Assembly (NCBI GenBank): GCA_964035575.1
Contig: OZ037857.1
Location: forward strand, 1,054,001 to 1,118,000
Direction of reading: 5' to 3'
Length of the DNA stretch: 64,000 nucleotides
Origin: Rhynchopus sp. YZ270_cl-10
Lineage: Eukaryota > Euglenozoa > Diplonemea > Diplonemida > Diplonemidae
In this document: positions 7,797 through 29,300 of the stretch, piece by piece
Position numbering within the stretch: the first letter of the stretch is position 1
How the letters are laid out: every line of letters begins with the position of its first letter
The notes under the pieces: model-generated
Told to the model about the DNA's origin: nothing
Databases searched by the model: none
The model's input: the letters and a program-made list of their open reading frames with translations, nothing else
Translations under genes and position numbers: made by a program

Positions 7797-8014
7797 TTTT
7801 TTAGCACATCTCACACAAACAATCCAGCACAAAATATTAGAGGTTACTGCGCACGGGAGTCTCTGTTTCATCTTAAAACATTTCCTTTGTACCTTCACCT
7901 TTTCCGTTATTCCTCACACAACCTCACCAACACCCACCCAACGCCAGATATTCTCAAAACAACCCACATACACACACCCGTGCCAAAGTCCAAGACAAAG
8001 AGCACCACAACAAA

Positions 8015-9454
8015 ATGCGGGGCGTCTTTGTGCTGCTGGTGCTGCTGTGCACCCAGAACACTGCCGAGGCGGGGACCTACCAAACACGTCCCTTCTTCCA
8101 GACGCCAACAAGCTGTGCACAGATGTGGCGTGCAGCGTCGTACGACGGACACAGGAACAACCTGGACCTGAACCAGTGGGACGTGGGGGCAGGGTCAACC
8201 GTGCAGGACGAGGGGAACTTCGTGCGTGCGGCTGCTGGGGGCAAGGTTGTGGAGGCGTACACAGTGAACTCGCCCGACTCGAAGCACCACGGGGCGAGAC
8301 GCGTGCGCATCGACCACGAGAACGGGTGGAAGACGTACTACACACACATGCGCGACTCGGTGTCGCACCTGCTGAACGAGCGTGTTGCACAGGGCGAGGT
8401 GATTGGGATCACCGGGACGACTGGGAACAGCAACGGCCCGCACATCCACACGAACCAGGAGGGGCTCGACAGCGACAGCGGGAGCTACGACAACATGCGC
8501 CACACGTACAACGGCGTGTACTCGACTGTGCACGAAGGGAACTTCGGGGCGACGGAGCTGCTCCTGAGCAACAACTGCGGGGGCGAGCGTTTCATGGCGT
8601 GGTCTGAGGGGACGAGGGACTTCATGCTCATCTACAAGCCGCAGAGCGGGTCTGTCAAGATTGTGGAGGTGGACTCGGACGGGAAGGGGACGACAACACG
8701 GTACTCGAGCACGTGGTCGCTGCAGTACACGCACATGGAGGCGTACAAGGTGTCCGGGGTGCAGTACGCGGTGCTGTACAAGGCACGCACGGGGTTCGTC
8801 AACTTCATCCGCCTTACAGCAGGGGGTGCCGGGTACTCGAACGTTGTGACTGGGACCTGGGGCACAGGCTGGACCCACATTGTGCCGTTCCAGAACGGGA
8901 ACACTGCGTACCTGCTTGTGTACAGCAGCCTGCACGGGCATGCGAACTGGGAGCGTGTCAACGCCGGGAACGTGTACACAACGAACCTGCACGCGTCGAA
9001 CTGGGTGCGCGGCCGCACTGTGCTGATGCCGTACTGGAAGAGCGGTGTGCAGTACCTGCTGCTGTACAGGGGCGGAAGCGGTGATGTGAAGACGGTCTCC
9101 GTGTCCTTTGCGTGGGGGTCTGTGTCGACGCAGCTTGTGTGGACGGCGACGTGGACGGGCGGGTGGACGCACATGGTTGACTTCAACGTGGGCGGGCTGT
9201 CGTACATGCTGGCGTACAAGCAGGAGACTGGCACGGCAAAGATCCTGAAGTACGGCGCCACAGGTGTGACGACAACGTACTCGTCGACGTGGTCGAAGCC
9301 GTGGACACACATCACCCCCTTCTACATCGGCTCCACCGGACACGTCCTTATGTACAAGACTGGCACCGGCTACATGCAGACCATGCGCATTGCAAACGGT
9401 GGCACGGGCTACACAAAGCTGTGGGGGGCGACGTGGACGAGCGGGTGGAACTAA
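8015..9454 (+). CDS. Secreted M23-family metallopeptidase with six C-terminal WTH repeats, copy 1
   Basis: 479 residues. A signal peptide (MRGVFVLLVLLCTQNTAEA) precedes a LytM/lysostaphin-like M23 domain at about residues 20-190. Likely zinc ligands are in SYDGHRNNLDLN and in the HxH motif GPHIH; GGKVVEAY and GEVIGITGTTGNS are typical M23 strands. Residues about 195-479 form six repeats of about 46 residues, with a WTHIxPF...YLLxYK...G pattern and ending in TWS/TWT, probably a beta-propeller-like binding module. M23 enzymes cut peptidoglycan cross-bridges, so this is probably a secreted bacteriolytic enzyme. The domain is mainly bacterial, so transfer from bacteria is plausible but not shown. 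The start was chosen because the signal peptide begins there, in a CAAAATG context shared with other genes. Confidence 0.92.
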   Translation: MRGVFVLLVLLCTQNTAEAGTYQTRPFFQTPTSCAQMWRAASYDGHRNNLDLNQWDVGAGSTVQDEGNFVRAAAGGKVVEAYTVNSPDSKHHGARRVRIDHENGWKTYYTHMRDSVSHLLNERVAQGEVIGITGTTGNSNGPHIHTNQEGLDSDSGSYDNMRHTYNGVYSTVHEGNFGATELLLSNNCGGERFMAWSEGTRDFMLIYKPQSGSVKIVEVDSDGKGTTTRYSSTWSLQYTHMEAYKVSGVQYAVLYKARTGFVNFIRLTAGGAGYSNVVTGTWGTGWTHIVPFQNGNTAYLLVYSSLHGHANWERVNAGNVYTTNLHASNWVRGRTVLMPYWKSGVQYLLLYRGGSGDVKTVSVSFAWGSVSTQLVWTATWTGGWTHMVDFNVGGLSYMLAYKQETGTAKILKYGATGVTTTYSSTWSKPWTHITPFYIGSTGHVLMYKTGTGYMQTMRIANGGTGYTKLWGATWTSGWN

Positions 9455-10811
9455 ACCTAAGCTTTAGCTTTATAAACCACTGTGTGGTTCGCATCCGTAT
9501 GTCTGTGTTGTTCTTGTGGCTGTGTGTTTGGGTTTCCCATGATTTTTTGTTTTGATGTTAATGTTTATATGTGGTGACTGTGGGTTGGCGACAGCGGAAC
9601 CATGGAGTGTCCTTCTTCACGTGCAGGCGTGTGTGGGGTGTGAAAGAGATCGCACCCTATGCACACCCGCTTCTTTTCTTTACCCTGCTCCCAAGGCGCC
9701 ATTGTTTTGCGTTTGCCATTATCCCGCTTCATCACTGATTATTGGTTATAATATTGATTGTTTCTTCTTTCTTTTCGTATCTATGCCATGTGGGCAAGTC
9801 AGCAGCACCACACCACTTGTGTGCCGCTTTCTTACCGCCCCCCTTTTATGATGATAACAGATGTCTTTTTCTTTACCTGCACACACAGTCTTTTCTCTTC
9901 TCTTCACTGTTGTGCCGGCATATGTTTTCCTTCCTCTACCTATACCATTAATAAATGTGACCCCTTGCAAAAAACACAATGCACGGCTGGCGCAAGCAAA
10001 AAAAGGGAAAAGCCCCTTTTCCTTTGTGTTGCTGTGGCAGTTTGTGTTGTGTGGGGTCTTTTTCCTTTTATGATTTCCACCCTTCCCCCTTTTTTAAAGC
10101 TGTGCTGTGTTTGGTGCCTCTTTTGTTTTTTGCGTCCGTGTGGATGTGTGTCGGTGTTCTTCTCCCTCGCCCACCCACCCCTCTGACCACCCACAACGTC
10201 TTCCCCTCTCGGAAGTGGAGGGGGGGACAGCGGAGGGTCGAATGGTTTGGGTTGGTGGAGGAGAGAACACAACCAATTTGCACGCACCTTGCGGACAGAG
10301 GACACTGAAACACAATGGAGGCGAACCTGTTCGCACAGAAATAAACCGTATTCGTGCTGTGCCTGTGACATAACACTGCACAGGGACAGCACGTTTCTGC
10401 TCGATTTTATCACATCACCCTTCCCCTCCCCTCCGCTCCACACCCTTTTTGTTTTTTTCTTGTTTTTTATGATGTTCTTTTTAGTTTCGTTTGGAACCGC
10501 ACAACACAAGTTCTGATGTTGTGCTCCAGACAAAGCATTTTACCCACAAATTATTGCTTTCTTTTCATTTTTTTTTTTGTTTCTCTTTCTTTGATGATGC
10601 CCGTGTATACTGTGCCTGGCAAAGAAAAACGTCCTCCTCTTCCTCACACCCACCCCCCTCTGTTTTTATATCTTCCCTCTTGTCCCCAGTGATCCATCCT
10701 AACATAACCTCACCAACACTAAAACAACACCCACCCAACGCCAGATATTCTCAAAACAACCCACATACACACACCCGTGCCAAAGTCCAAGACAAAGAGC
10801 ACCACAACAAA
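9455..10811. other. Spacer of unit 1 in the M23 array
   Basis: 1357 bp with no protein-like frame, repeated after each copy. It contains CATTAATAAATG near 9947, a possible polyadenylation region. At its end is a strong pyrimidine tract and CCCCAG (AG at 10688-10689), 123 bp before the next start codon, which looks like a splice acceptor. Confidence 0.7.
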
Positions 10812-12249
10812 ATGCGGGGCGTCTTTGTGCTGCTGGTGCTGCTGTGCACCCAGAACACTGCCGAGGCGGGGACCTACCAAACACGTCCCTTCTTCCAGAC
10901 GCCAACAAGCTGTGCACAGATGTGGCGTGCAGCGTCGTACGACGGACACAGGAACAACCTGGACCTGAACCAGTGGGACGTGGGGGCAGGGTCAACCGTG
11001 CAGGACGAGGGGAACTTCGTGCGTGCGGCTGCTGGGGGCAAGGTTGTGGAGGCGTACACAGTGAACTCGCCCGACTCGAAGCACCACGGGGCGAGACGCG
11101 TGCGCATCGACCACGAGAACGGGTGGAAGACGTACTACACACATGCGCGACTCGGTGTCGCACCTGCTGAACGAGCGTGTTGCACAGGGCGAGGTGATTG
11201 GGATCACCGGGACGACTGGGAACAGCAACGGCCCGCACATCCACACGAACCAGGAGGGGCTCGACAGCGACAGCGGGAGCTACGACAACATGCGCCACAC
11301 GTACAACGGCGTGTACTCGACTGTGCACGAAGGGAACTTCGGGGCGACGGAGCTGCTCCTGAGCAACAACTGCGGGGGCGAGCGTTTCATGGCGTGGTCT
11401 GAGGGGACGAGGGACTTCATGCTCATCTACAAGCCGCAGAGCGGGTCTGTCAAGATTGTGGAGGTGGACTCGGACGGGAAGGGGACGACAACACGGTACT
11501 CGAGCACGTGGTCGCTGCAGTACACGCACATGGAGGCGTACAAGGTGTCCGGGGTGCAGTACGCGGTGCTGTACAAGGCACGCACGGGGTTCGTCAACTT
11601 CATCCGCCTTACAGCAGGGGGTGCCGGGTACTCGAACGTTGTGACTGGGACCTGGGGCACAGGCTGGACCCACATTGTGCCGTTCCAGAACGGGAACACT
11701 GCGTACCTGCTTGTGTACAGCAGCCTGCACGGGCATGCGAACTGGGAGCGTGTCAACGCCGGGAACGTGTACACAACGAACCTGCACGCGTCGAACTGGG
11801 TGCGCGGCCGCACTGTGCTGATGCCGTACTGGAAGAGCGGTGTGCAGTACCTGCTGCTGTACAGGGGCGGAAGCGGTGATGTGAAGACGGTCTCCGTGTC
11901 CTTTGCGTGGGGGTCTGTGTCGACGCAGCTTGTGTGGACGGCGACGTGGACGGGCGGGTGGACGCACATGGTTGACTTCAACGTGGGCGGGCTGTCGTAC
12001 ATGCTGGCGTACAAGCAGGAGACTGGCACGGCAAAGATCCTGAAGTACGGCGCCACAGGTGTGACGACAACGTACTCGTCGACGTGGTCGAAGCCGTGGA
12101 CACACATCACCCCCTTCTACATCGGCTCCACCGGACACGTCCTTATGTACAAGACTGGCACCGGCTACATGCAGACCATGCGCATTGCAAACGGTGGCAC
12201 GGGCTACACAAAGCTGTGGGGGGCGACGTGGACGAGCGGGTGGAACTAA
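10812..12249 (+). pseudogene. M23 metallopeptidase copy 2, frameshifted
   Basis: Same gene as at 8015, but one CA of a CACACACA run is missing at about 11140-11144. The frame leaves the M23 domain after KTYYTH (about residue 110), before the HxH motif, and runs to a stop near 11402. The downstream part (11143-12249) stays open in the original frame. An intact protein therefore cannot be made without frameshifting. Everything else seems identical to the intact copies, so the lesion is either very recent or a sequencing or assembly error in a dinucleotide run. Confidence 0.85.
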
Positions 12250-13606
12250 ACCTAAGCTTTAGCTTTATAAACCACTGTGTGGTTCGCATCCGTATGTCTG
12301 TGTTGTTCTTGTGGCTGTGTGTTTGGGTTTCCCATGATTTTTTGTTTTGATGTTAATGTTTATATGTGGTGACTGTGGGTTGGCGACAGCGGAACCATGG
12401 AGTGTCCTTCTTCACGTGCAGGCGTGTGTGGGGTGTGAAAGAGATCGCACCCTATGCACACCCGCTTCTTTTCTTTACCCTGCTCCCAAGGCGCCATTGT
12501 TTTGCGTTTGCCATTATCCCGCTTCATCACTGATTATTGGTTATAATATTGATTGTTTCTTCTTTCTTTTCGTATCTATGCCATGTGGGCAAGTCAGCAG
12601 CACCACACCACTTGTGTGCCGCTTTCTTACCGCCCCCCTTTTATGATGATAACAGATGTCTTTTTCTTTACCTGCACACACAGTCTTTTCTCTTCTCTTC
12701 ACTGTTGTGCCGGCATATGTTTTCCTTCCTCTACCTATACCATTAATAAATGTGACCCCTTGCAAAAAACACAATGCACGGCTGGCGCAAGCAAAAAAAG
12801 GGAAAAGCCCCTTTTCCTTTGTGTTGCTGTGGCAGTTTGTGTTGTGTGGGGTCTTTTTCCTTTTATGATTTCCACCCTTCCCCCTTTTTTAAAGCTGTGC
12901 TGTGTTTGGTGCCTCTTTTGTTTTTTGCGTCCGTGTGGATGTGTGTCGGTGTTCTTCTCCCTCGCCCACCCACCCCTCTGACCACCCACAACGTCTTCCC
13001 CTCTCGGAAGTGGAGGGGGGGACAGCGGAGGGTCGAATGGTTTGGGTTGGTGGAGGAGAGAACACAACCAATTTGCACGCACCTTGCGGACAGAGGACAC
13101 TGAAACACAATGGAGGCGAACCTGTTCGCACAGAAATAAACCGTATTCGTGCTGTGCCTGTGACATAACACTGCACAGGGACAGCACGTTTCTGCTCGAT
13201 TTTATCACATCACCCTTCCCCTCCCCTCCGCTCCACACCCTTTTTGTTTTTTTCTTGTTTTTTATGATGTTCTTTTTAGTTTCGTTTGGAACCGCACAAC
13301 ACAAGTTCTGATGTTGTGCTCCAGACAAAGCATTTTACCCACAAATTATTGCTTTCTTTTCATTTTTTTTTTTGTTTCTCTTTCTTTGATGATGCCCGTG
13401 TATACTGTGCCTGGCAAAGAAAAACGTCCTCCTCTTCCTCACACCCACCCCCCTCTGTTTTTATATCTTCCCTCTTGTCCCCAGTGATCCATCCTAACAT
13501 AACCTCACCAACACTAAAACAACACCCACCCAACGCCAGATATTCTCAAAACAACCCACATACACACACCCGTGCCAAAGTCCAAGACAAAGAGCACCAC
13601 AACAAA
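12250..13606. other. Spacer of unit 2 in the M23 array
   Basis: Copy of 9455-10811; nothing additional seen. Confidence 0.7.
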
Positions 13607-15046
13607 ATGCGGGGCGTCTTTGTGCTGCTGGTGCTGCTGTGCACCCAGAACACTGCCGAGGCGGGGACCTACCAAACACGTCCCTTCTTCCAGACGCCAA
13701 CAAGCTGTGCACAGATGTGGCGTGCAGCGTCGTACGACGGACACAGGAACAACCTGGACCTGAACCAGTGGGACGTGGGGGCAGGGTCAACCGTGCAGGA
13801 CGAGGGGAACTTCGTGCGTGCGGCTGCTGGGGGCAAGGTTGTGGAGGCGTACACAGTGAACTCGCCCGACTCGAAGCACCACGGGGCGAGACGCGTGCGC
13901 ATCGACCACGAGAACGGGTGGAAGACGTACTACACACACATGCGCGACTCGGTGTCGCACCTGCTGAACGAGCGTGTTGCACAGGGCGAGGTGATTGGGA
14001 TCACCGGGACGACTGGGAACAGCAACGGCCCGCACATCCACACGAACCAGGAGGGGCTCGACAGCGACAGCGGGAGCTACGACAACATGCGCCACACGTA
14101 CAACGGCGTGTACTCGACTGTGCACGAAGGGAACTTCGGGGCGACGGAGCTGCTCCTGAGCAACAACTGCGGGGGCGAGCGTTTCATGGCGTGGTCTGAG
14201 GGGACGAGGGACTTCATGCTCATCTACAAGCCGCAGAGCGGGTCTGTCAAGATTGTGGAGGTGGACTCGGACGGGAAGGGGACGACAACACGGTACTCGA
14301 GCACGTGGTCGCTGCAGTACACGCACATGGAGGCGTACAAGGTGTCCGGGGTGCAGTACGCGGTGCTGTACAAGGCACGCACGGGGTTCGTCAACTTCAT
14401 CCGCCTTACAGCAGGGGGTGCCGGGTACTCGAACGTTGTGACTGGGACCTGGGGCACAGGCTGGACCCACATTGTGCCGTTCCAGAACGGGAACACTGCG
14501 TACCTGCTTGTGTACAGCAGCCTGCACGGGCATGCGAACTGGGAGCGTGTCAACGCCGGGAACGTGTACACAACGAACCTGCACGCGTCGAACTGGGTGC
14601 GCGGCCGCACTGTGCTGATGCCGTACTGGAAGAGCGGTGTGCAGTACCTGCTGCTGTACAGGGGCGGAAGCGGTGATGTGAAGACGGTCTCCGTGTCCTT
14701 TGCGTGGGGGTCTGTGTCGACGCAGCTTGTGTGGACGGCGACGTGGACGGGCGGGTGGACGCACATGGTTGACTTCAACGTGGGCGGGCTGTCGTACATG
14801 CTGGCGTACAAGCAGGAGACTGGCACGGCAAAGATCCTGAAGTACGGCGCCACAGGTGTGACGACAACGTACTCGTCGACGTGGTCGAAGCCGTGGACAC
14901 ACATCACCCCCTTCTACATCGGCTCCACCGGACACGTCCTTATGTACAAGACTGGCACCGGCTACATGCAGACCATGCGCATTGCAAACGGTGGCACGGG
15001 CTACACAAAGCTGTGGGGGGCGACGTGGACGAGCGGGTGGAACTAA
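13607..15046 (+). CDS. Secreted M23-family metallopeptidase, copy 3
   Basis: Intact 479-residue copy with the CA run restored. The frame is also open upstream to 13286, starting from a non-ATG codon. That extension is translated spacer and crosses the acceptor-like CCCCAG, so the start at the signal peptide is preferred. Confidence 0.92.
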   Translation: MRGVFVLLVLLCTQNTAEAGTYQTRPFFQTPTSCAQMWRAASYDGHRNNLDLNQWDVGAGSTVQDEGNFVRAAAGGKVVEAYTVNSPDSKHHGARRVRIDHENGWKTYYTHMRDSVSHLLNERVAQGEVIGITGTTGNSNGPHIHTNQEGLDSDSGSYDNMRHTYNGVYSTVHEGNFGATELLLSNNCGGERFMAWSEGTRDFMLIYKPQSGSVKIVEVDSDGKGTTTRYSSTWSLQYTHMEAYKVSGVQYAVLYKARTGFVNFIRLTAGGAGYSNVVTGTWGTGWTHIVPFQNGNTAYLLVYSSLHGHANWERVNAGNVYTTNLHASNWVRGRTVLMPYWKSGVQYLLLYRGGSGDVKTVSVSFAWGSVSTQLVWTATWTGGWTHMVDFNVGGLSYMLAYKQETGTAKILKYGATGVTTTYSSTWSKPWTHITPFYIGSTGHVLMYKTGTGYMQTMRIANGGTGYTKLWGATWTSGWN

Positions 15047-16403
15047 ACCTAAGCTTTAGCTTTATAAACCACTGTGTGGTTCGCATCCGTATGTCTGTGT
15101 TGTTCTTGTGGCTGTGTGTTTGGGTTTCCCATGATTTTTTGTTTTGATGTTAATGTTTATATGTGGTGACTGTGGGTTGGCGACAGCGGAACCATGGAGT
15201 GTCCTTCTTCACGTGCAGGCGTGTGTGGGGTGTGAAAGAGATCGCACCCTATGCACACCCGCTTCTTTTCTTTACCCTGCTCCCAAGGCGCCATTGTTTT
15301 GCGTTTGCCATTATCCCGCTTCATCACTGATTATTGGTTATAATATTGATTGTTTCTTCTTTCTTTTCGTATCTATGCCATGTGGGCAAGTCAGCAGCAC
15401 CACACCACTTGTGTGCCGCTTTCTTACCGCCCCCCTTTTATGATGATAACAGATGTCTTTTTCTTTACCTGCACACACAGTCTTTTCTCTTCTCTTCACT
15501 GTTGTGCCGGCATATGTTTTCCTTCCTCTACCTATACCATTAATAAATGTGACCCCTTGCAAAAAACACAATGCACGGCTGGCGCAAGCAAAAAAAGGGA
15601 AAAGCCCCTTTTCCTTTGTGTTGCTGTGGCAGTTTGTGTTGTGTGGGGTCTTTTTCCTTTTATGATTTCCACCCTTCCCCCTTTTTTAAAGCTGTGCTGT
15701 GTTTGGTGCCTCTTTTGTTTTTTGCGTCCGTGTGGATGTGTGTCGGTGTTCTTCTCCCTCGCCCACCCACCCCTCTGACCACCCACAACGTCTTCCCCTC
15801 TCGGAAGTGGAGGGGGGGACAGCGGAGGGTCGAATGGTTTGGGTTGGTGGAGGAGAGAACACAACCAATTTGCACGCACCTTGCGGACAGAGGACACTGA
15901 AACACAATGGAGGCGAACCTGTTCGCACAGAAATAAACCGTATTCGTGCTGTGCCTGTGACATAACACTGCACAGGGACAGCACGTTTCTGCTCGATTTT
16001 ATCACATCACCCTTCCCCTCCCCTCCGCTCCACACCCTTTTTGTTTTTTTCTTGTTTTTTATGATGTTCTTTTTAGTTTCGTTTGGAACCGCACAACACA
16101 AGTTCTGATGTTGTGCTCCAGACAAAGCATTTTACCCACAAATTATTGCTTTCTTTTCATTTTTTTTTTTGTTTCTCTTTCTTTGATGATGCCCGTGTAT
16201 ACTGTGCCTGGCAAAGAAAAACGTCCTCCTCTTCCTCACACCCACCCCCCTCTGTTTTTATATCTTCCCTCTTGTCCCCAGTGATCCATCCTAACATAAC
16301 CTCACCAACACTAAAACAACACCCACCCAACGCCAGATATTCTCAAAACAACCCACATACACACACCCGTGCCAAAGTCCAAGACAAAGAGCACCACAAC
16401 AAA
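15047..16403. other. Spacer of unit 3 in the M23 array
   Basis: Copy of 9455-10811; nothing additional seen. Confidence 0.7.
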
Positions 16404-17843
16404 ATGCGGGGCGTCTTTGTGCTGCTGGTGCTGCTGTGCACCCAGAACACTGCCGAGGCGGGGACCTACCAAACACGTCCCTTCTTCCAGACGCCAACAA
16501 GCTGTGCACAGATGTGGCGTGCAGCGTCGTACGACGGACACAGGAACAACCTGGACCTGAACCAGTGGGACGTGGGGGCAGGGTCAACCGTGCAGGACGA
16601 GGGGAACTTCGTGCGTGCGGCTGCTGGGGGCAAGGTTGTGGAGGCGTACACAGTGAACTCGCCCGACTCGAAGCACCACGGGGCGAGACGCGTGCGCATC
16701 GACCACGAGAACGGGTGGAAGACGTACTACACACACATGCGCGACTCGGTGTCGCACCTGCTGAACGAGCGTGTTGCACAGGGCGAGGTGATTGGGATCA
16801 CCGGGACGACTGGGAACAGCAACGGCCCGCACATCCACACGAACCAGGAGGGGCTCGACAGCGACAGCGGGAGCTACGACAACATGCGCCACACGTACAA
16901 CGGCGTGTACTCGACTGTGCACGAAGGGAACTTCGGGGCGACGGAGCTGCTCCTGAGCAACAACTGCGGGGGCGAGCGTTTCATGGCGTGGTCTGAGGGG
17001 ACGAGGGACTTCATGCTCATCTACAAGCCGCAGAGCGGGTCTGTCAAGATTGTGGAGGTGGACTCGGACGGGAAGGGGACGACAACACGGTACTCGAGCA
17101 CGTGGTCGCTGCAGTACACGCACATGGAGGCGTACAAGGTGTCCGGGGTGCAGTACGCGGTGCTGTACAAGGCACGCACGGGGTTCGTCAACTTCATCCG
17201 CCTTACAGCAGGGGGTGCCGGGTACTCGAACGTTGTGACTGGGACCTGGGGCACAGGCTGGACCCACATTGTGCCGTTCCAGAACGGGAACACTGCGTAC
17301 CTGCTTGTGTACAGCAGCCTGCACGGGCATGCGAACTGGGAGCGTGTCAACGCCGGGAACGTGTACACAACGAACCTGCACGCGTCGAACTGGGTGCGCG
17401 GCCGCACTGTGCTGATGCCGTACTGGAAGAGCGGTGTGCAGTACCTGCTGCTGTACAGGGGCGGAAGCGGTGATGTGAAGACGGTCTCCGTGTCCTTTGC
17501 GTGGGGGTCTGTGTCGACGCAGCTTGTGTGGACGGCGACGTGGACGGGCGGGTGGACGCACATGGTTGACTTCAACGTGGGCGGGCTGTCGTACATGCTG
17601 GCGTACAAGCAGGAGACTGGCACGGCAAAGATCCTGAAGTACGGCGCCACAGGTGTGACGACAACGTACTCGTCGACGTGGTCGAAGCCGTGGACACACA
17701 TCACCCCCTTCTACATCGGCTCCACCGGACACGTCCTTATGTACAAGACTGGCACCGGCTACATGCAGACCATGCGCATTGCAAACGGTGGCACGGGCTA
17801 CACAAAGCTGTGGGGGGCGACGTGGACGAGCGGGTGGAACTAA
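16404..17843 (+). CDS. Secreted M23-family metallopeptidase, copy 4
   Basis: Intact 479-residue copy; no difference from copy 3 noticed by eye. Confidence 0.92.
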   Translation: MRGVFVLLVLLCTQNTAEAGTYQTRPFFQTPTSCAQMWRAASYDGHRNNLDLNQWDVGAGSTVQDEGNFVRAAAGGKVVEAYTVNSPDSKHHGARRVRIDHENGWKTYYTHMRDSVSHLLNERVAQGEVIGITGTTGNSNGPHIHTNQEGLDSDSGSYDNMRHTYNGVYSTVHEGNFGATELLLSNNCGGERFMAWSEGTRDFMLIYKPQSGSVKIVEVDSDGKGTTTRYSSTWSLQYTHMEAYKVSGVQYAVLYKARTGFVNFIRLTAGGAGYSNVVTGTWGTGWTHIVPFQNGNTAYLLVYSSLHGHANWERVNAGNVYTTNLHASNWVRGRTVLMPYWKSGVQYLLLYRGGSGDVKTVSVSFAWGSVSTQLVWTATWTGGWTHMVDFNVGGLSYMLAYKQETGTAKILKYGATGVTTTYSSTWSKPWTHITPFYIGSTGHVLMYKTGTGYMQTMRIANGGTGYTKLWGATWTSGWN

Positions 17844-19200
17844 ACCTAAGCTTTAGCTTTATAAACCACTGTGTGGTTCGCATCCGTATGTCTGTGTTGT
17901 TCTTGTGGCTGTGTGTTTGGGTTTCCCATGATTTTTTGTTTTGATGTTAATGTTTATATGTGGTGACTGTGGGTTGGCGACAGCGGAACCATGGAGTGTC
18001 CTTCTTCACGTGCAGGCGTGTGTGGGGTGTGAAAGAGATCGCACCCTATGCACACCCGCTTCTTTTCTTTACCCTGCTCCCAAGGCGCCATTGTTTTGCG
18101 TTTGCCATTATCCCGCTTCATCACTGATTATTGGTTATAATATTGATTGTTTCTTCTTTCTTTTCGTATCTATGCCATGTGGGCAAGTCAGCAGCACCAC
18201 ACCACTTGTGTGCCGCTTTCTTACCGCCCCCCTTTTATGATGATAACAGATGTCTTTTTCTTTACCTGCACACACAGTCTTTTCTCTTCTCTTCACTGTT
18301 GTGCCGGCATATGTTTTCCTTCCTCTACCTATACCATTAATAAATGTGACCCCTTGCAAAAAACACAATGCACGGCTGGCGCAAGCAAAAAAAGGGAAAA
18401 GCCCCTTTTCCTTTGTGTTGCTGTGGCAGTTTGTGTTGTGTGGGGTCTTTTTCCTTTTATGATTTCCACCCTTCCCCCTTTTTTAAAGCTGTGCTGTGTT
18501 TGGTGCCTCTTTTGTTTTTTGCGTCCGTGTGGATGTGTGTCGGTGTTCTTCTCCCTCGCCCACCCACCCCTCTGACCACCCACAACGTCTTCCCCTCTCG
18601 GAAGTGGAGGGGGGGACAGCGGAGGGTCGAATGGTTTGGGTTGGTGGAGGAGAGAACACAACCAATTTGCACGCACCTTGCGGACAGAGGACACTGAAAC
18701 ACAATGGAGGCGAACCTGTTCGCACAGAAATAAACCGTATTCGTGCTGTGCCTGTGACATAACACTGCACAGGGACAGCACGTTTCTGCTCGATTTTATC
18801 ACATCACCCTTCCCCTCCCCTCCGCTCCACACCCTTTTTGTTTTTTTCTTGTTTTTTATGATGTTCTTTTTAGTTTCGTTTGGAACCGCACAACACAAGT
18901 TCTGATGTTGTGCTCCAGACAAAGCATTTTACCCACAAATTATTGCTTTCTTTTCATTTTTTTTTTTGTTTCTCTTTCTTTGATGATGCCCGTGTATACT
19001 GTGCCTGGCAAAGAAAAACGTCCTCCTCTTCCTCACACCCACCCCCCTCTGTTTTTATATCTTCCCTCTTGTCCCCAGTGATCCATCCTAACATAACCTC
19101 ACCAACACTAAAACAACACCCACCCAACGCCAGATATTCTCAAAACAACCCACATACACACACCCGTGCCAAAGTCCAAGACAAAGAGCACCACAACAAA
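17844..19200. other. Spacer of unit 4 in the M23 array
   Basis: Copy of 9455-10811; nothing additional seen. Confidence 0.7.
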
Positions 19201-20640
19201 ATGCGGGGCGTCTTTGTGCTGCTGGTGCTGCTGTGCACCCAGAACACTGCCGAGGCGGGGACCTACCAAACACGTCCCTTCTTCCAGACGCCAACAAGCT
19301 GTGCACAGATGTGGCGTGCAGCGTCGTACGACGGACACAGGAACAACCTGGACCTGAACCAGTGGGACGTGGGGGCAGGGTCAACCGTGCAGGACGAGGG
19401 GAACTTCGTGCGTGCGGCTGCTGGGGGCAAGGTTGTGGAGGCGTACACAGTGAACTCGCCCGACTCGAAGCACCACGGGGCGAGACGCGTGCGCATCGAC
19501 CACGAGAACGGGTGGAAGACGTACTACACACACATGCGCGACTCGGTGTCGCACCTGCTGAACGAGCGTGTTGCACAGGGCGAGGTGATTGGGATCACCG
19601 GGACGACTGGGAACAGCAACGGCCCGCACATCCACACGAACCAGGAGGGGCTCGACAGCGACAGCGGGAGCTACGACAACATGCGCCACACGTACAACGG
19701 CGTGTACTCGACTGTGCACGAAGGGAACTTCGGGGCGACGGAGCTGCTCCTGAGCAACAACTGCGGGGGCGAGCGTTTCATGGCGTGGTCTGAGGGGACG
19801 AGGGACTTCATGCTCATCTACAAGCCGCAGAGCGGGTCTGTCAAGATTGTGGAGGTGGACTCGGACGGGAAGGGGACGACAACACGGTACTCGAGCACGT
19901 GGTCGCTGCAGTACACGCACATGGAGGCGTACAAGGTGTCCGGGGTGCAGTACGCGGTGCTGTACAAGGCACGCACGGGGTTCGTCAACTTCATCCGCCT
20001 TACAGCAGGGGGTGCCGGGTACTCGAACGTTGTGACTGGGACCTGGGGCACAGGCTGGACCCACATTGTGCCGTTCCAGAACGGGAACACTGCGTACCTG
20101 CTTGTGTACAGCAGCCTGCACGGGCATGCGAACTGGGAGCGTGTCAACGCCGGGAACGTGTACACAACGAACCTGCACGCGTCGAACTGGGTGCGCGGCC
20201 GCACTGTGCTGATGCCGTACTGGAAGAGCGGTGTGCAGTACCTGCTGCTGTACAGGGGCGGAAGCGGTGATGTGAAGACGGTCTCCGTGTCCTTTGCGTG
20301 GGGGTCTGTGTCGACGCAGCTTGTGTGGACGGCGACGTGGACGGGCGGGTGGACGCACATGGTTGACTTCAACGTGGGCGGGCTGTCGTACATGCTGGCG
20401 TACAAGCAGGAGACTGGCACGGCAAAGATCCTGAAGTACGGCGCCACAGGTGTGACGACAACGTACTCGTCGACGTGGTCGAAGCCGTGGACACACATCA
20501 CCCCCTTCTACATCGGCTCCACCGGACACGTCCTTATGTACAAGACTGGCACCGGCTACATGCAGACCATGCGCATTGCAAACGGTGGCACGGGCTACAC
20601 AAAGCTGTGGGGGGCGACGTGGACGAGCGGGTGGAACTAA
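19201..20640 (+). CDS. Secreted M23-family metallopeptidase, copy 5
   Basis: Intact 479-residue copy and the last in the array. Its downstream spacer loses homology near 21858, so the array ends inside the spacer and not at a gene boundary. Confidence 0.92.
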   Translation: MRGVFVLLVLLCTQNTAEAGTYQTRPFFQTPTSCAQMWRAASYDGHRNNLDLNQWDVGAGSTVQDEGNFVRAAAGGKVVEAYTVNSPDSKHHGARRVRIDHENGWKTYYTHMRDSVSHLLNERVAQGEVIGITGTTGNSNGPHIHTNQEGLDSDSGSYDNMRHTYNGVYSTVHEGNFGATELLLSNNCGGERFMAWSEGTRDFMLIYKPQSGSVKIVEVDSDGKGTTTRYSSTWSLQYTHMEAYKVSGVQYAVLYKARTGFVNFIRLTAGGAGYSNVVTGTWGTGWTHIVPFQNGNTAYLLVYSSLHGHANWERVNAGNVYTTNLHASNWVRGRTVLMPYWKSGVQYLLLYRGGSGDVKTVSVSFAWGSVSTQLVWTATWTGGWTHMVDFNVGGLSYMLAYKQETGTAKILKYGATGVTTTYSSTWSKPWTHITPFYIGSTGHVLMYKTGTGYMQTMRIANGGTGYTKLWGATWTSGWN

Positions 20641-22604
20641 ACCTAAGCTTTAGCTTTATAAACCACTGTGTGGTTCGCATCCGTATGTCTGTGTTGTTCT
20701 TGTGGCTGTGTGTTTGGGTTTCCCATGATTTTTTGTTTTGATGTTAATGTTTATATGTGGTGACTGTGGGTTGGCGACAGCGGAACCATGGAGTGTCCTT
20801 CTTCACGTGCAGGCGTGTGTGGGGTGTGAAAGAGATCGCACCCTATGCACACCCGCTTCTTTTCTTTACCCTGCTCCCAAGGCGCCATTGTTTTGCGTTT
20901 GCCATTATCCCGCTTCATCACTGATTATTGGTTATAATATTGATTGTTTCTTCTTTCTTTTCGTATCTATGCCATGTGGGCAAGTCAGCAGCACCACACC
21001 ACTTGTGTGCCGCTTTCTTACCGCCCCCCTTTTATGATGATAACAGATGTCTTTTTCTTTACCTGCACACACAGTCTTTTCTCTTCTCTTCACTGTTGTG
21101 CCGGCATATGTTTTCCTTCCTCTACCTATACCATTAATAAATGTGACCCCTTGCAAAAAACACAATGCACGGCTGGCGCAAGCAAAAAAAGGGAAAAGCC
21201 CCTTTTCCTTTGTGTTGCTGTGGCAGTTTGTGTTGTGTGGGGTCTTTTTCCTTTTATGATTTCCACCCTTCCCCCTTTTTTAAAGCTGTGCTGTGTTTGG
21301 TGCCTCTTTTGTTTTTTGCGTCCGTGTGGATGTGTGTCGGTGTTCTTCTCCCTCGCCCACCCACCCCTCTGACCACCCACAACGTCTTCCCCTCTCGGAA
21401 GTGGAGGGGGGGACAGCGGAGGGTCGAATGGTTTGGGTTGGTGGAGGAGAGAACACAACCAATTTGCACGCACCTTGCGGACAGAGGACACTGAAACACA
21501 ATGGAGGCGAACCTGTTCGCACAGAAATAAACCGTATTCGTGCTGTGCCTGTGACATAACACTGCACAGGGACAGCACGTTTCTGCTCGATTTTATCACA
21601 TCACCCTTCCCCTCCCCTCCGCTCCACACCCTTTTTGTTTTTTTCTTGTTTTTTATGATGTTCTTTTTAGTTTCGTTTGGAACCGCACAACACAAGTTCT
21701 GATGTTGTGCTCCAGACAAAGCATTTTACCCACAAATTATTGCTTTCTTTTCATTTTTTTTTTTGTTTCTCTTTCTTTGATGATGCCCGTGTATACTGTG
21801 CCTGGCAAAGAAAAACGTCCTCCTCTTCCTCACACCCGCCCCTGTTTTTATATCTTCCTTCACCTTCCTTCTCTCTGATTCCGGGAAATCACATATCTTT
21901 CCACGCAATTTGTACACGAAGAAGTGAGTGCCTGTCAAGTGGACAGTGTCGTCTTGGCTCCATGGTCCGGCAACTGGTTATTTAGATGGGTGTATTGTGT
22001 TGCGGATGTGCTTTTTGATAGGAGCTACGAACTCCTGATGTCCGTATGTGTGTACTCTCCCGTGAGGAGGACTTACATTTCGCCCTAGGTACCCTTTTCT
22101 CATAGTGTGTCAGTTCTGTTGGTACAGTCTGGGTCTTGTGGGTTTCGTTATCTTGTGGTTGTTGGTGCTTGCTGATACGGAGAGCTTCAGGTTTAGTCTG
22201 TTCGAACTGTCAGGGTTACCTGAACAGGATTTTGAGTTCGGAGGGCTGTATTACTTGAAGGAGATATTTGACTGTGCCGCTCCAAGAAGACCCTGTCTGT
22301 ATACCGTTTCTATAGTTTCTTCACAAATATTGGACTGCTTGGTGAGATTAATACTGACGAGCTATCTGCAGTGGCAATTTCCATTGTGCACGAGTATATG
22401 TTACTTTCTTGTTGTGTCGTATTCAGGTATTGCATATCTTCAGCAACAGAGGTGTGTTCTTAAACAGAAGTCGCGAGGACAAAGGGTTGTCGAGTCGTTC
22501 TTTTGCAGTTTTGTACCACTTTCCCCTTCCTGCTTGTCCACTCTTGTATTACTCCACTTTTGTCAGGTTTTTACCGTAAATATAACAAGAAGAAAAGACA
22601 CAAA
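20641..22604. other. Truncated array spacer and upstream region of the PA14/DUF1080 gene
   Basis: 20641-21858 is the array spacer, cut short. 21859-22604 is unique sequence without a convincing gene; a 167-codon frame at 22105-22608 has no recognisable features. Just upstream of the next gene is CTTTTGTCAG (AG at 22564-22565), acceptor-like, 39 bp before its ATG. Confidence 0.6.
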
Positions 22605-24596
22605 ATGATGATGTTGAGGGCAGCCTTTGCCCTGCTGTGCGTGCCTATAGTGACGGGTGCTGCGTGCAGCTGTGCAAACGGAGAGCAGGAGGGGCTCCGT
22701 GGTGTGTTCTGGAAAAGCAGTCTGACGGACAACGTGAACCGCCTGCCTGAATCAGGGAGCTCGCTGTGGACAAGCACTGACGGGCGGATTGAGCGTGTTG
22801 TGGCGAACCTGGACCAGGCACAGACAGCAGACGCTTGGCCTGATGTGCCGAGTGCGTACACACGTGATTACGTGGATGTGCACACGGGGCTGCTGCGGGT
22901 GCCTGTGTCAGGAGACTACGAGCTGCACGTCACGTCGAACGACGGGTCTCGCGTGCTGCTGGGAGGGCAGGAGGTCGTCAACAACGACGGAGCTCACGGA
23001 ATGATTGAGAGAAGCGGGTCGCGGTACCTGGAGGCAGGTGTTGTTGAGATTGAGGTGCAGCACTTCCAGGGCATCGGCACCGCAGGTCTGATCTTGAAGT
23101 GGACCCCGTCAGGCGGCGTCAAGGAGGTGGTGCCTGTGGGAAGCTTTTCCCACTGCAACTGTGGATCGCCACCACCACCAGTGTCAGTTCCGCCAGCGAC
23201 GCCTGCTGCTGGGCTGGCGTGTCCGGCAGGTACCGAGCAGGTGGGTCCTGCAAACGCTGATGTTTCTGGCTGTGGTTTGGATGGGTGTGGGGCAAGATAC
23301 TGGGACAGCACAATCGAACAGTGTGATGCACACTGTGCTCAGAACGCCAACTGCAAGAGTTTCACATGGGCACCTATTGGTGGAGACAAGAACGTTCTCG
23401 GTGAAACTGTCTGCACAATCTACAACAGAGACACTCACACCGCGACATGGGGACCGAACCAGATCATGTGCAAAAGGTCCGTTGTCACCACTCCAACACC
23501 GCCCACACCAACACCGGTGTCAAAACCACCAACACCACCGACACCAGCCACACCACCACCAGTGTCAGTTCCACCAGCGACGCCTGCTGCTGGGCTGGCG
23601 TGTCCGGCAGGTACCGAGCAGGTGGGTCCTGCAAACGCTGATGTTTCTGGCTGTGGTTTGGATGGGTGTGGGGCAAGATACTGGGACAGCACAATCGAAC
23701 AGTGCGATGCACACTGCGCTCAGAACGCCAACTGCAAGAGTTTCACATGGGCACCTATTGGTGGAGACAAGAATGTTCTCGGTGAAACTGTCTGCACAAT
23801 CTACAACAGAGACACTCACACCGCGACATGGGGACCGAACCAGATCATGTGCAAAAGGTCCGCTGTCACCACACCAACACCGCCTACACAAGCACCAGTG
23901 CCAACACCACCAACACCACCACCGACACCAGCACCAACAGGCATTGTGGCACCGTTCTTCAACGGCAAGGACTTCACAGGGTTCGGGTTTGCAGTGCAAA
24001 AGACAAACTCCAACAGAGACCGCTTCCCTGCAGAGAGCTTCTGGTCCATCCCTGAAGAGGGGCTGATCTACGCAGACGGGGACAAGGACAACCTCGGGAG
24101 GAGCACACCACAGAGCGGCCTCTACAGCTTGGCGGCCTATGGGAACTACGAGCTGACGTTCGAGTACCAGTACACATCATCGGAATCCTGGGGCAACAGC
24201 GGTGTTTGGATCCACGGCGGGGACGCCATCACACACGACAATGGTGCCTTCCCTGAGTCGGTGGAGGTGCAGCTGAAGAAACGGTCTGCCGGCGACATTC
24301 TGCTGAAGGGTGTGAACACCTACCCTGAGCCCCCATACACAGCCACCAGGGACCAAGGCAACCCGACGGGACGCATCGGACGCCGTATCATCCCTGATGG
24401 CGAGAACTTCGAAGAGTGGAACAAGGTCAGAATTGTGACATATCAGAGCGCTACGCAGGGCAACGTGATTGAGGTGTATGTGAGGGACCAGTTTGTGAAC
24501 AAAGCGATCAACTGTGCACGCAGTGAGGGACGCATCACATTCCAGGCAGAGTGGGTGGACATCAAGTTCAAAGATATTGTCTTGAAGTTGAACTGA
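22605..24596 (+). CDS. Secreted PA14 - PAN-like x2 - DUF1080 (3-keto-disaccharide hydrolase fold) protein
   Basis: 663 residues. A signal peptide (MMMLRAAFALLCVPIVTGA) leads into a PA14 domain at about 20-185 (TGLLRVPVSGDYELHVTSND, HFQGIGTAGLILKW). Two almost identical cysteine-rich modules follow (CPAGTEQVGPANADVSGCGL ... CDAHCAQNANCKSFTW ... CTIYNRD), which look like PAN/apple domains, joined by Pro/Thr linkers. The C-terminus (about 450-663; FFNGKDFTGFGF, YQYTSSESWGNSGVWIHGG, EWNKVRIV) is a DUF1080 concanavalin-like domain of the 3-keto-disaccharide hydrolase type. PA14 and PAN domains bind carbohydrate, so a secreted glycan-degrading role is inferred. The PAN modules and linkers repeat with a 381-bp period, a recent internal duplication. 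The ATG has the CACAAAATG context shared with neighbouring genes. Confidence 0.87.
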   Translation: MMMLRAAFALLCVPIVTGAACSCANGEQEGLRGVFWKSSLTDNVNRLPESGSSLWTSTDGRIERVVANLDQAQTADAWPDVPSAYTRDYVDVHTGLLRVPVSGDYELHVTSNDGSRVLLGGQEVVNNDGAHGMIERSGSRYLEAGVVEIEVQHFQGIGTAGLILKWTPSGGVKEVVPVGSFSHCNCGSPPPPVSVPPATPAAGLACPAGTEQVGPANADVSGCGLDGCGARYWDSTIEQCDAHCAQNANCKSFTWAPIGGDKNVLGETVCTIYNRDTHTATWGPNQIMCKRSVVTTPTPPTPTPVSKPPTPPTPATPPPVSVPPATPAAGLACPAGTEQVGPANADVSGCGLDGCGARYWDSTIEQCDAHCAQNANCKSFTWAPIGGDKNVLGETVCTIYNRDTHTATWGPNQIMCKRSAVTTPTPPTQAPVPTPPTPPPTPAPTGIVAPFFNGKDFTGFGFAVQKTNSNRDRFPAESFWSIPEEGLIYADGDKDNLGRSTPQSGLYSLAAYGNYELTFEYQYTSSESWGNSGVWIHGGDAITHDNGAFPESVEVQLKKRSAGDILLKGVNTYPEPPYTATRDQGNPTGRIGRRIIPDGENFEEWNKVRIVTYQSATQGNVIEVYVRDQFVNKAINCARSEGRITFQAEWVDIKFKDIVLKLN

Positions 24597-25809: not shown

Positions 25810-26303
25810 GTCGATACAACAAAACAAAAAAACACTGTTCGCACCTCCACCTCCACCCCCACCCCTCCACCACAGAGGATGAGACCCTTGACGGTTGAAG
25901 ACTCTCGTTCCTCTCTTTTTATGAAAGAATGCGGAAAGGGGGGACGTTTTTTTTGTTTATCTATTTGCCGCACACCTCCACAGAGCGAGCAGAGAGTGGG
26001 TCACTGTAATGTACGCAACCCACCTCTTTCAAAGCAGTGCAAAAACACGCTGCCGGTCACGTATGCCTGTGGATGTGCTCGAAAACTGTGTCATGCATAT
26101 GTATAGAGAAAGACGAGCTGTGCAGTATTTGGAGCGAGCACACATGCTACTTTGTCTCCATGTATGCCATGTCCTGTAGACATCTATTGCAAAAGCTTAT
26201 GGTTCTTGCTCCTGTTCTTTGCCTTCTATTGTTGCCCTCCCACCCTTCTACCCATCCCCATACCATCAACACCCCTTCCCTCAGAGCGCGTCTTCATGGA
26301 AAG

Positions 26304-29300
26304 ATGAATGGTTTGCTCGGAGAGTGGCGCCAGGTGTGTCAGGAGGCCAAGGCAGGCCAGGCGGGAGGCGAGCTTCGGTTCTTGGACTATGCAGTGAGCA
26401 CACAGGAGGCCTGCGCGGAGCTGGCGGAGCAGGGGTATGTGGGGAATGGGGCCGCAATGGGGAAGGTGCTGGCGTGGGCGAACACAGGGCCGCCAACACA
26501 TGTGTTCTATGGTACGGAGCCGTCGTCTGCTGTGGGCATGCCACCCACACAGGTGGCCATGCGGGAGCAGCTCTACGCCACCATCGCAACACCCAACCCC
26601 ATGCACCGTGTCAACGGAGACAGCAGGTCAGAAGAGGTCTTCTCGTCGCTGGATATGGCTGTCCGCCTTCAGGTTGAAGAAAGTGTTGCAAAGCGACGCA
26701 AAACGGAGTATAACGTTGCGCGGACCATAGCAGGTGAAGCAGCGCGTTCGACCGCAGAACGTTTGCCAAGCATGGTGCAGACAGAGCTGCTCGCACTGCG
26801 TGAGAGGAAGGCGAAGGAGTGGCGGCACAAAGGGCGGCTGTGGAGCAACATCGCACACCAAGCAGCACGCCTCCCACAGCAGAAGGGGCCGGACCTCAAA
26901 TCCGGTAGTCTCTGTGGAACGGGGATGCATCTCGTACAGCTGACTGTCGGGGAGCAAGCCTTACAGGTTGTCCGCGTAAAGTACTTTTTCATGTTGAAGC
27001 TGCTGAACCTCACGGAGGCCTACACAGACAAGGCAGGGTTCGAAGTGTTTACGGTCTCCCTCGATGAGCAGCTGGTCGCACGCTGCCACAAAGCAGCAAT
27101 GTTTGCTGCAACCGGGATCGCCATGCAACGACAGAAGGTCATCAAATGCTACGAAGGCGTCGCAAACAGGTGGTACTCCAGCAACATCCCCACCGACGTG
27201 CGGGGCGTTCCAGCAAAGGAGTTTGCAACGCTTCTTCGGTTCAAATCAGTTGCGACCAAGACACAGACCCGCATCGCCTCACGCCTCGCACAGGACTACA
27301 CTGCACGCAGAAACACCGTATTAGTCACACCACCCGGAACTGGCGCAAGAACAGCCGTGATGTGCCACCTCTTGGAACGCACTGTGACGTCACCTTCAGG
27401 AAAGTCACCCCACATCGTGGTAGCACCCGAGGGAAATATCCTTGCATGGGTGGAGGCAGCGAAGTTCCGCCTTCCCGAGGCAGCTGTGTACGCGCAGGTT
27501 TGCGTGCTGACGAAGGTGGGGCGGGAGACGGACGACTTTGCTGTTGAGTTTCACAAAATGCTGGACACCCCCATTCAACAGCTGCGCACCTCGCGTAGGA
27601 GCGGGGTGGGGACGACGACACTGTCATCCATAATAACTGCCCTGACGAACCTCGTTCTCGTCACACCTGATGTGTTTGAGGAGCTTGCAGTGAAATGCTT
27701 TTTGGGTTCATATCCGTTCGACAGCCTCGTCATTGATCACAAGGTGTATAGTCTTTCAGACCCGATGCACGGTATTGAGTCGCTTCTTTATCAGGCACGT
27801 CTGCAGTTTCGACATAGAGTTCTGTTGATCGGGCAGGACCCTGCACACATTGCTTCAGTAGACTTTTCATGGGCAATCTCCCAGATGATGGCGCCCCGCT
27901 TCTTTGGACCGGTAATGTATTATTTGACTGCTGATGTGGGTGAGCTTTCTTTGTCAACAGCGTTTCGACGTCTGCCGAACAACAAAAAGACGAAATACAT
28001 GCCGGGGAGGCTCAAGACTATAGCAAGAGAGGCGCGCCTCGTGAGGGAGAGGGGGGAGGAGGGGAGGAGCGGGCAGGGGCTGTTCTATCGTCTCATGTCG
28101 TTGGCGTTTTTGCGGGAGTGGTTGGGATGTGGGCAGGACGTCGCGCCTGCGTCGTTTGCAGAGATGGTGTGCAGGCCGGATGAGGCTCGTCTAGTCGCGG
28201 ACCGATTTCTTCAGGTAATTGGACCAAACGTTGCGAGATATAGAAGTACCGTGATGGGGTCCGGTAAGGTGCTTGAATTTGGTGTGCGGTGCCCGCTCAG
28301 TGCAATGCAGAGTCGTGTGGTGTGTTTGTTGGCAGGTTTGTTGTCTGAGAAGGAGCGTGCCATCCGGGCGTCAGTGCAGGGGGAAATGGAAAGGGTGGCT
28401 AGGGAAGAGGGGCAGTCGCAGCTTGGGGCGCTCGGTGTGGACAGAAAGGCGCATCATAACCACCTCCGTCATCGCCTCTCCGAGCAGGCAGAGCAGAGCA
28501 GCTTGCAGTATTTCGTTTGCGTGCTTAACTTGATGACACGGTTTTCGGTTCACCCCTCGCTTGTTGGGGCGTTTAGTCAACCATTGACGTCTTCATTGCG
28601 CCCAGAGGATTCAGAGGAGGACCGTGCGAAATGGTCCCGCCGTTCCAGCGGAGTTCTTGCAACATTGCATCTATTGATTTTGGAGTTGCAATCTCGCATT
28701 GAGACGACATTTGTTCATCGAGTCTTTGTATTTTGCCGGCGAAAGGAAAGTTACGATATGTTACAGTGGTATCTTCGGGAGGATGCTGAGATGAAGGCAT
28801 TGTTTGGTGGCAGCTCACGATGCAGCTTTGCATCGCATTGTGGTGATGATGGTGCAAACCGGGATGCGTTTGAGAGCTTTGTTGGGGCAACGAGGGGGAT
28901 GTCACTTCTCGTTTCTTATGGGGTAGTGCCGTTTATGGACCATACACTGACCGATTCGTTGATCACCTTCGACTGCCATAAGGAATGCCCCGAGCTGACA
29001 AATCTCCTTGGTACGATGCGGAGGGTGGGGGATGAGTTCATGATGCGTCTTATCATGCTGCTTCCTATGCAAAACGAGGCGGTCTCCCTCATGGATGATG
29101 AAAGAGAAATGTGTCTCGCCCATTCCGCTCAAATTGCAGCAACCCAACTGCGAGCCGCCTGCGGAGAGCAAGACGACACCGAAGAAGAGAACGACGCAAA
29201 AGCGTCAAGAGAGAACTCGGCGGTAGGACACACAGTACGCAAAATGATTGCAAAAGGGTTCAGCAAGACTCTTTCGCGTGCGGTGCGGGAGCAGGTCAAG

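What the first reader, a model, noticed from the sequence alone, without database searches (positions are those of the whole stretch)
7919..21858. Five near-identical tandem copies of a secreted bacterial-type peptidoglycan endopeptidase gene in a eukaryote
The sequence shows five 2797-bp units with identical spacers and an M23 domain carrying a signal peptide. M23 LytM-type enzymes are known to cleave bacterial cell walls. Amplifying such a gene suggests selection for dosage of a bacteriolytic secreted enzyme, perhaps acquired from bacteria. The C-terminal six-repeat WTH module is of a kind I cannot assign to a named family.
Basis: partly seen in the sequence, partly recalled or inferred. Interest (0 to 1): 0.85.

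Follow-up and report, generated by a model that had tools for sequence, protein, structure and literature searches.

The report
Bacterial wall-cutting enzyme array in diplonemid
A single-celled protist (a diplonemid, a kind of mostly marine flagellate) carries a tandem array of a secreted, bacterial-type enzyme of the kind that cuts bacterial cell walls, which suggests that it borrowed a bacterial weapon or digestive tool and multiplied it.

Summary
Confirmed, with one correction. The window holds five head-to-tail units of 2,797 bp, identical except that copy 2 is 2 bp shorter in an (AC)n tract and is frameshifted. Four copies encode the same 479-aa protein: signal peptide, M23 peptidase domain with its motif residues, and a six-bladed beta-propeller (the 'WTH module') matching no Pfam family. 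The host is a diplonemid, judged from its spliced-leader genes. Its genome has at least 13 copies of the family, 11 with intact frames, at nine places. The same architecture occurs in a few bacteria (Lysobacter, Pseudoxanthomonas, two MAGs), in nine unnamed environmental proteins and in one EukProt transcript. Eukaryotic rows stand together (100/100); in an outgroup-rooted M23 tree they nest among the others, but the AU test does not reject the alternative (p 0.134). Ten of ten coding differences between the array gene and one dispersed copy are synonymous. Best reading: a bacterial peptidoglycan endopeptidase acquired once, kept, and amplified for killing or digesting bacteria. Activity, expression and read support for the copy number are untested.

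The parts
7928..21837 (+). tandem array of five units, 2797 bp each (second unit 2795 bp, fifth truncated)
8015..9454 (+). copy 1, intact CDS, 479 aa
10812..12249 (+). copy 2, frameshifted by a 2-bp shorter (AC)n tract at about 11144
   Evidence: could be real or an assembly error
13607..15046 (+). copy 3, intact CDS
16404..17843 (+). copy 4, intact CDS
19201..20640 (+). copy 5, intact CDS
8015..8071 (+). signal peptide of copy 1, residues 1-19 (MRGVFVLLVLLCTQNTAEA); no prediction tool run, read by eye
8087..8500 (+). M23 peptidase domain of copy 1, bounds estimated (Pfam match residues 66-146); H46, D51, H111, H143 and H145 invariant in 18 of 18 aligned family members
8582..9451 (+). six-bladed beta-propeller of copy 1, residues 190-479, no Pfam match
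10640..10689 (+). polypyrimidine tract and AG, probable trans-splice acceptor of copy 2; same element before copies 3-5 (AG ends at 13484, 16281, 19078), absent before copy 1
   Evidence: function inferred
9455..10639 (+). intergenic spacer, identical between copies

Best explanation
A secreted zinc endopeptidase of peptidase family M23, joined to a six-bladed beta-propeller, was acquired once from bacteria by an ancestor of this diplonemid. It diverged into two classes in the genome (C84/C74 type and window/C51/P0003 type). The window class was copied to several places and, here, amplified in tandem. The protein enters the secretory pathway (signal peptide; two invariant cysteines, C34 and C188, perhaps a disulphide) and goes to the digestive vacuole or outside the cell. 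The basic propeller (calculated pI 9.7) binds a bacterial surface polymer and the M23 domain cuts peptidoglycan peptides, opening prey bacteria for digestion. Shown here: array, architecture, motif residues, fold by model, bacterial full-length relatives, the eukaryotic rows standing together, constraint on the protein. Inferred: direction of transfer (likely), zinc activity, substrate, propeller ligand, location, use in feeding.
Against: No activity, expression or localisation data. The AU test does not reject the non-eukaryotic full-length rows as one clade (p 0.134), the root branch there is weak (77/34), and only 13 such rows are in hand, 9 of them of unnamed source and taken to be bacterial. 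The H46/D51 motif lies outside the HMM matches and has spacing 4, against 3 in LytM. Structural neighbours at tied Z include LytM domains named as activators or scaffolds (DipM, EnvC, SpoIIQ). Some M23 enzymes, such as LasA, are known (recalled) to cut other proteins. Two of 13 copies are frameshifted. dN/dS between the distant classes is 0.34 and 0.55, with dS near 1 or above, so constraint is clear only among close copies.
Confidence: 0.62

Rival explanations
1. Same enzyme, but used to control bacterial endosymbionts or resident bacteria, not to feed.
For: Diplonemids frequently associate with intracellular alphaproteobacteria, and one carries a chlamydia (PMC12171722, passages). Acquired bacterial wall hydrolases act against bacteria in T. 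vaginalis (PMC6299479, abstract) and ladybirds (PMC7807722, abstract).
Against: Nothing in the sequence points to a symbiont-facing compartment. Whether this strain has symbionts was not tested.
Confidence: 0.15
2. The M23 domain cleaves non-bacterial proteins (as LasA can, recalled) for osmotrophic or eukaryotic prey digestion.
For: Near M23 structures include LasA 3it5 and Lysobacter beta-lytic protease 8af1. D. papillatum is described as relying on peptides and a eukaryotic diet (PMC10161547, passages).
Against: PMC9662197 treats M23 peptidases as peptidoglycan hydrolases (passages).
Confidence: 0.12
3. The five-fold array is an assembly expansion or collapse of fewer or more copies; the gene family is real.
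For: Copies are identical over 2.8 kb, so the copy number rests on reads that span 14 kb. A 2-bp length change in an (AC)n tract is a plausible sequencing error.
Against: Array ends differ from internal units, and eight other copies exist at other places, so multi-copy status does not depend on the array.
Confidence: 0.15
4. Bacterial contamination of the assembly.
For: Bacterial-type protein, intronless, GC3 0.85 against 0.54-0.74 in 8 other window ORFs.
Against: The array lies inside a 1.6-Mb contig with eukaryotic genes on both sides. Other copies with 83.5-89.5% identical spacers lie elsewhere. EukProt holds a relative at 57% that groups with these. GC3 elsewhere in the genome reaches 0.88.
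Confidence: 0.01

Closest known systems
Trichomonas vaginalis NlpC/P60 peptidoglycan hydrolases (PMC6299479)
   Same: Bacterial wall peptidase genes acquired by a protist and used against bacteria (abstract read).
   Different: Other peptidase family (NlpC/P60); activity was shown there, not here.
M23 bacteriolytic enzymes: Lysobacter beta-lytic protease, pseudoalterin (PMC6962226), zoocin A, lysostaphin
   Same: M23 fold and motif residues; secreted enzymes that kill other bacteria (pseudoalterin from its abstract; the others recalled or by PDB title).
   Different: Bacterial; none is known to me to carry this propeller; H(x)nD spacing differs from LytM's.
M23-propeller proteins of Lysobacter chinensis, Pseudoxanthomonas wuyuanensis, a Solirubrobacteraceae MAG and an alphaproteobacterial MAG (L038-L041)
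   Same: Full-length collinear architecture, 30-36% identity, same invariant residues.
   Different: One full-length match in each of the four genomes; function also unknown.
Diplonema papillatum genes from bacteria (PMC10161547)
   Same: Transferred families tandemly duplicated to up to six copies in a diplonemid (section 13).
   Different: Mostly metabolic genes; the authors report no CAZymes for bacterial cell walls, and words beginning 'peptidase' or 'peptidoglycan' do not occur in the main text. Supplements were not read.
Beta-propellers: Bacillus phytase (1poo), RSL lectin (4csd, 7e7w), LGI1 EPTP (5y2z), LRP6 YWTD
   Different: Sequence identity 4-12%; no Pfam match for this module.

Membership tests
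Peptidase family M23 | Pfam PF01551 over its curated cut-off | tested here: met
   53.1 bits against 28.7 for the window protein; 18 of 18 aligned members match at E<=1
Peptidase family M23 | H(x)nD zinc motif | tested here: met
   H46 and D51 invariant in 18 of 18; assigned by invariance, not by HMM alignment; spacing x4
Peptidase family M23 | HxH motif and a further His about 30 residues before it | tested here: met
   H143-x-H145 and H111 invariant, aligned to known enzymes
Peptidase family M23 | M23/LytM fold | tested here: met
Peptidase family M23 | zinc-dependent cleavage of peptidoglycan | not testable with these tools
   needs biochemistry
Gene acquired from bacteria (criteria as in PMC10161547) | nested within a bacterial clade | tested here: inconclusive
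   nested on a 98/96 branch in the rooted M23 tree, but root branch 77/34 and AU p 0.134 for the alternative; full-length tree is unrooted
Gene acquired from bacteria (criteria as in PMC10161547) | lies among endogenous nuclear genes | tested here: met
   window neighbours by Pfam; neighbours of other copies by eye
Gene acquired from bacteria (criteria as in PMC10161547) | transcript carries the spliced leader | not testable with these tools
   no RNA data; polypyrimidine-AG before copies 2-5 only
Host is a diplonemid | SL RNA gene with 39-nt exon followed by GT | tested here: met
   L082 1481-1519 then GT; the 5' end is set by likeness to the recalled Diplonema SL; 39-bp length from PMC10161547
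EPTP/EAR, RSL-type lectin or YWTD propellers | sequence membership of the C-terminal module | tested here: inconclusive
   no such Pfam match at E<=1 in 18 members; fold similarity only

The most novel reading that the evidence does not exclude
A diplonemid lineage captured an M23-propeller bacteriolysin and made it, in 11 or more intact copies, its principal peptidoglycan-cutting weapon for eating bacteria. The C-terminal propeller is an undescribed family of bacterial-surface-binding modules that bacteria also attach to other secreted proteins (P0014).
Probability: 0.35. Interest if true: 0.75.

Novelty: new variant of a known kind. Interest (0 to 1): 0.58.

Why it matters
Diplonemids are among the most species-rich marine microeukaryotes and how they feed is disputed (PMC10161547, passages). 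The published D. papillatum genome was reported to lack CAZymes for bacterial cell walls. A bacterial-type wall peptidase with its motif residues in place, with few amino-acid changes among close copies and multiplied in another diplonemid, gives one testable gene behind a possible difference between bacterivorous and other species. It also presents an M23-linked beta-propeller with no Pfam match, a candidate cell-wall-binding module.

Tried and rejected
Contamination: rejected by context. High GC3 (0.85) as a sign of recent bacterial origin: rejected, because eIF3c-like and H2B-like genes of this genome have 0.88 and 0.80 (names by eye). Vertical eukaryotic origin: the two other M23 proteins of the genome (C1, C18; no signal peptide seen by eye) were not placed in a tree, so they were not compared. 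The database scans scored only the 7,993 candidates sharing most words; besides this family they gave P0014 (propeller, no M23 match) and P0015 and P0016 (other M23 proteins); the profile scan added nothing new. A first M23 tree held wrongly cut outgroup rows and was replaced. Of 18 outgroup candidates, 13 went into; L087, L091, L095, L096 and L100 fell out because the script did not find their frame. The full-length tree leaves out 5 eukaryotic near-duplicates of 24 rows. The nine rows P0005-P0013 are called bacterial in both trees, but their sources are unnamed. Species name: not settled; 152 Mb in 126 contigs does not match R. euleeides (199.0 Mb, 88 pseudomolecules, PMC12171722); the D. 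japonicum genome paper is not held. The first SL pattern gave 0 hits, the sampled SL here differing from it by one base. The standard 515F SSU pattern gave 0 hits; the euglenozoan variant gave 31 with up to 1 mismatch. In print: searches (PMC library only; listings seen) showed no listed paper on an M23 enzyme in a diplonemid or other bacterivorous protist; PMC7052976, listed, was not opened; two diplonemid papers searched by word (PMC10161547; PMC12697944) do not contain 'peptidoglycan' in the main text.

Full report
The array. Five units have their ATG at 8015, 10812, 13607, 16404 and 19201. They are identical base for base from 7928 to 21837, except that copy 2 is 2 bp shorter in an (AC)n tract near 11144; its frame shifts at about codon 111 and meets a stop after 196 codons. 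Copies 1, 3, 4 and 5 encode the same 479-aa protein. The outer ends differ: copy 1 lacks the polypyrimidine-AG element that precedes copies 2-5, and the last unit departs about 73 bp before its expected end.

The organism. The window lies in a 1.61-Mb contig of a 152-Mb assembly of 126 contigs. The genome holds 752 matches (up to 2 mismatches) to an SL-exon pattern against 1 for its reversed control. A sampled gene (L082 1481-1519) reads as a 39-nt exon followed by GT, the exon length that PMC10161547 gives for Diplonema (passage); its 5' end is set by likeness to the Diplonema SL as I recall it. Another sampled match (L079) is followed by A-rich sequence and not by GT, so not every match is an SL gene. 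SSU sites of the CCAGCACCCGCGG type are present (euglenozoan by recall), and the one SSU locus scanned matches SSU_rRNA_eukarya in part. I therefore call it a diplonemid; the species is not identified.

The family in this genome. A protein search found 15 stretches among 16 candidates scored, a lower bound. They resolve to 13 gene copies at nine places: the five here; C33:1133849 (identical protein), C94 and C56 (98-99%), C33:746629 (99% over residues 1-449, then a one-base gap that shifts the frame); and four diverged paralogues, C51 (53%), C84 (49%) and two on C74 (46%, identical to each other in protein). Eleven have intact frames. Coding DNA of the four near-identical dispersed copies is 98.5-99.3% identical to the array's, while spacers are 83.5-89.5% identical. 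Between the array and C33:1133849 all 10 coding differences are synonymous; if every point change were equally likely this has probability about 5e-7. dN/dS is 0.15 and 0.22 against C94 and C56, and 0.21 for C84 against C74; between the window and C51 or C84 it is 0.34 and 0.55, with dS near 1 or above. The protein is constrained among close copies. Window neighbours are eukaryotic by Pfam; the neighbours of the other copies look nuclear (histone-, eIF3c- and EF-Ts-like by eye).

Relatives. The scan of 5.8 billion proteins gave 15 hits. P0002 and P0004 equal this genome's C56 and C51 proteins. P0003 is a EukProt transcript at 57%; its species is not told. P0005-P0013 are full-length proteins of unnamed sources at 34-40%, taken here as bacterial. 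A profile search added none. In bacterial genomes, 36 of 90 pattern matches encode relatives, of which four are full length: Lysobacter chinensis, Pseudoxanthomonas wuyuanensis, a Solirubrobacteraceae MAG and an alphaproteobacterial MAG. Each of the four has one full-length match. In 149 genomes sampled from the Lysobacter family, 8 have a match at 1e-30, but only the starting genome's is full length; Pseudoxanthomonas is a second case known. The distribution is patchy. In the full-length tree the 6 eukaryotic rows are one side of a 100/100 branch against the 13 others; the root there is a midpoint and shows no direction. With 13 M23-only bacterial outgroup rows, the eukaryotes fall inside the other full-length rows on a 98/96 branch, but the root branch is weak (77/34) and the AU test does not reject those rows as one clade (p 0.134). 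Bacteria-to-eukaryote transfer is the likely direction, because the wider M23 family is overwhelmingly bacterial (97% of InterPro entries, PMC9662197, passage), but the tree does not prove it.

How it probably works. A signal peptide sends the protein out or to the digestive vacuole; the basic propeller holds a bacterial surface polymer; the M23 domain cuts wall peptides. M23 enzymes do this for predatory bacteria: pseudoalterin (PMC6962226, abstract) and Lysobacter Blp (PMC13300490, search listing). A protist and an insect group use borrowed wall hydrolases (PMC6299479 and PMC7807722, abstracts). This genome gave no match to GH25, Amidase_2 or NLPC_P60 (six-frame search, exon by exon), so M23 is the only one found of the four families searched; other lysozyme types were not searched. 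PMC10161547 (passages and section 13) reports no CAZymes for bacterial walls in D. papillatum, names Rhynchopus euleeides as bacterivorous, and describes bacterial-derived families tandemly duplicated to up to six copies, so the pattern fits what is known of diplonemid genomes.

What is open. Copy number needs reads; copy 2 may be a sequencing error; expression, activity, substrate and place of action are untested. Dosage selection is one reading of the array; unequal crossing-over with gene conversion is a sufficient neutral one.

Noticed in passing
window 22503-24596: Directly downstream of the array: secreted-looking protein with PA14, two PAN and a 3-keto-disaccharide hydrolase domain, with an internal 381-bp tandem duplication; possibly also of bacterial origin.
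   Followed up: no
L030 462-585 and 7420-7593; L033 1039-1204 and 8064-8197: The 5' UTR/acceptor stretch of the M23 unit is shared with a neighbouring, unrelated repeated gene (protein begins MELVVQGFSKEYVV), as if genes were copied under a common 5' module.
   Followed up: partly
L036 and L037 (C74:886000-895900 and C74:1103000-1112900): Two paralogues 217 kb apart differ by one coding base and are 98.3% identical over 2.4 kb.
   Followed up: partly
L001, L004: Two further M23 proteins of the genome with another architecture and no visible signal peptide.
   Followed up: no
window 48463-50385: ORF that reads like a non-LTR retrotransposon reverse transcriptase and RNase H (by eye).
   Followed up: no
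window 26037-29693: 1218-aa ORF without a Pfam match at E<=0.01.
   Followed up: no
window 41374-42627: Repetitive ORF of ankyrin-like units (by eye) with 300-bp and 114-bp internal tandem repeats.
   Followed up: no
L082: SL RNA and U6 snRNA genes lie in the same stretch (two U6 matches), unlike the SL-5S-U2 unit reported for D. papillatum (PMC10161547, passage).
   Followed up: no
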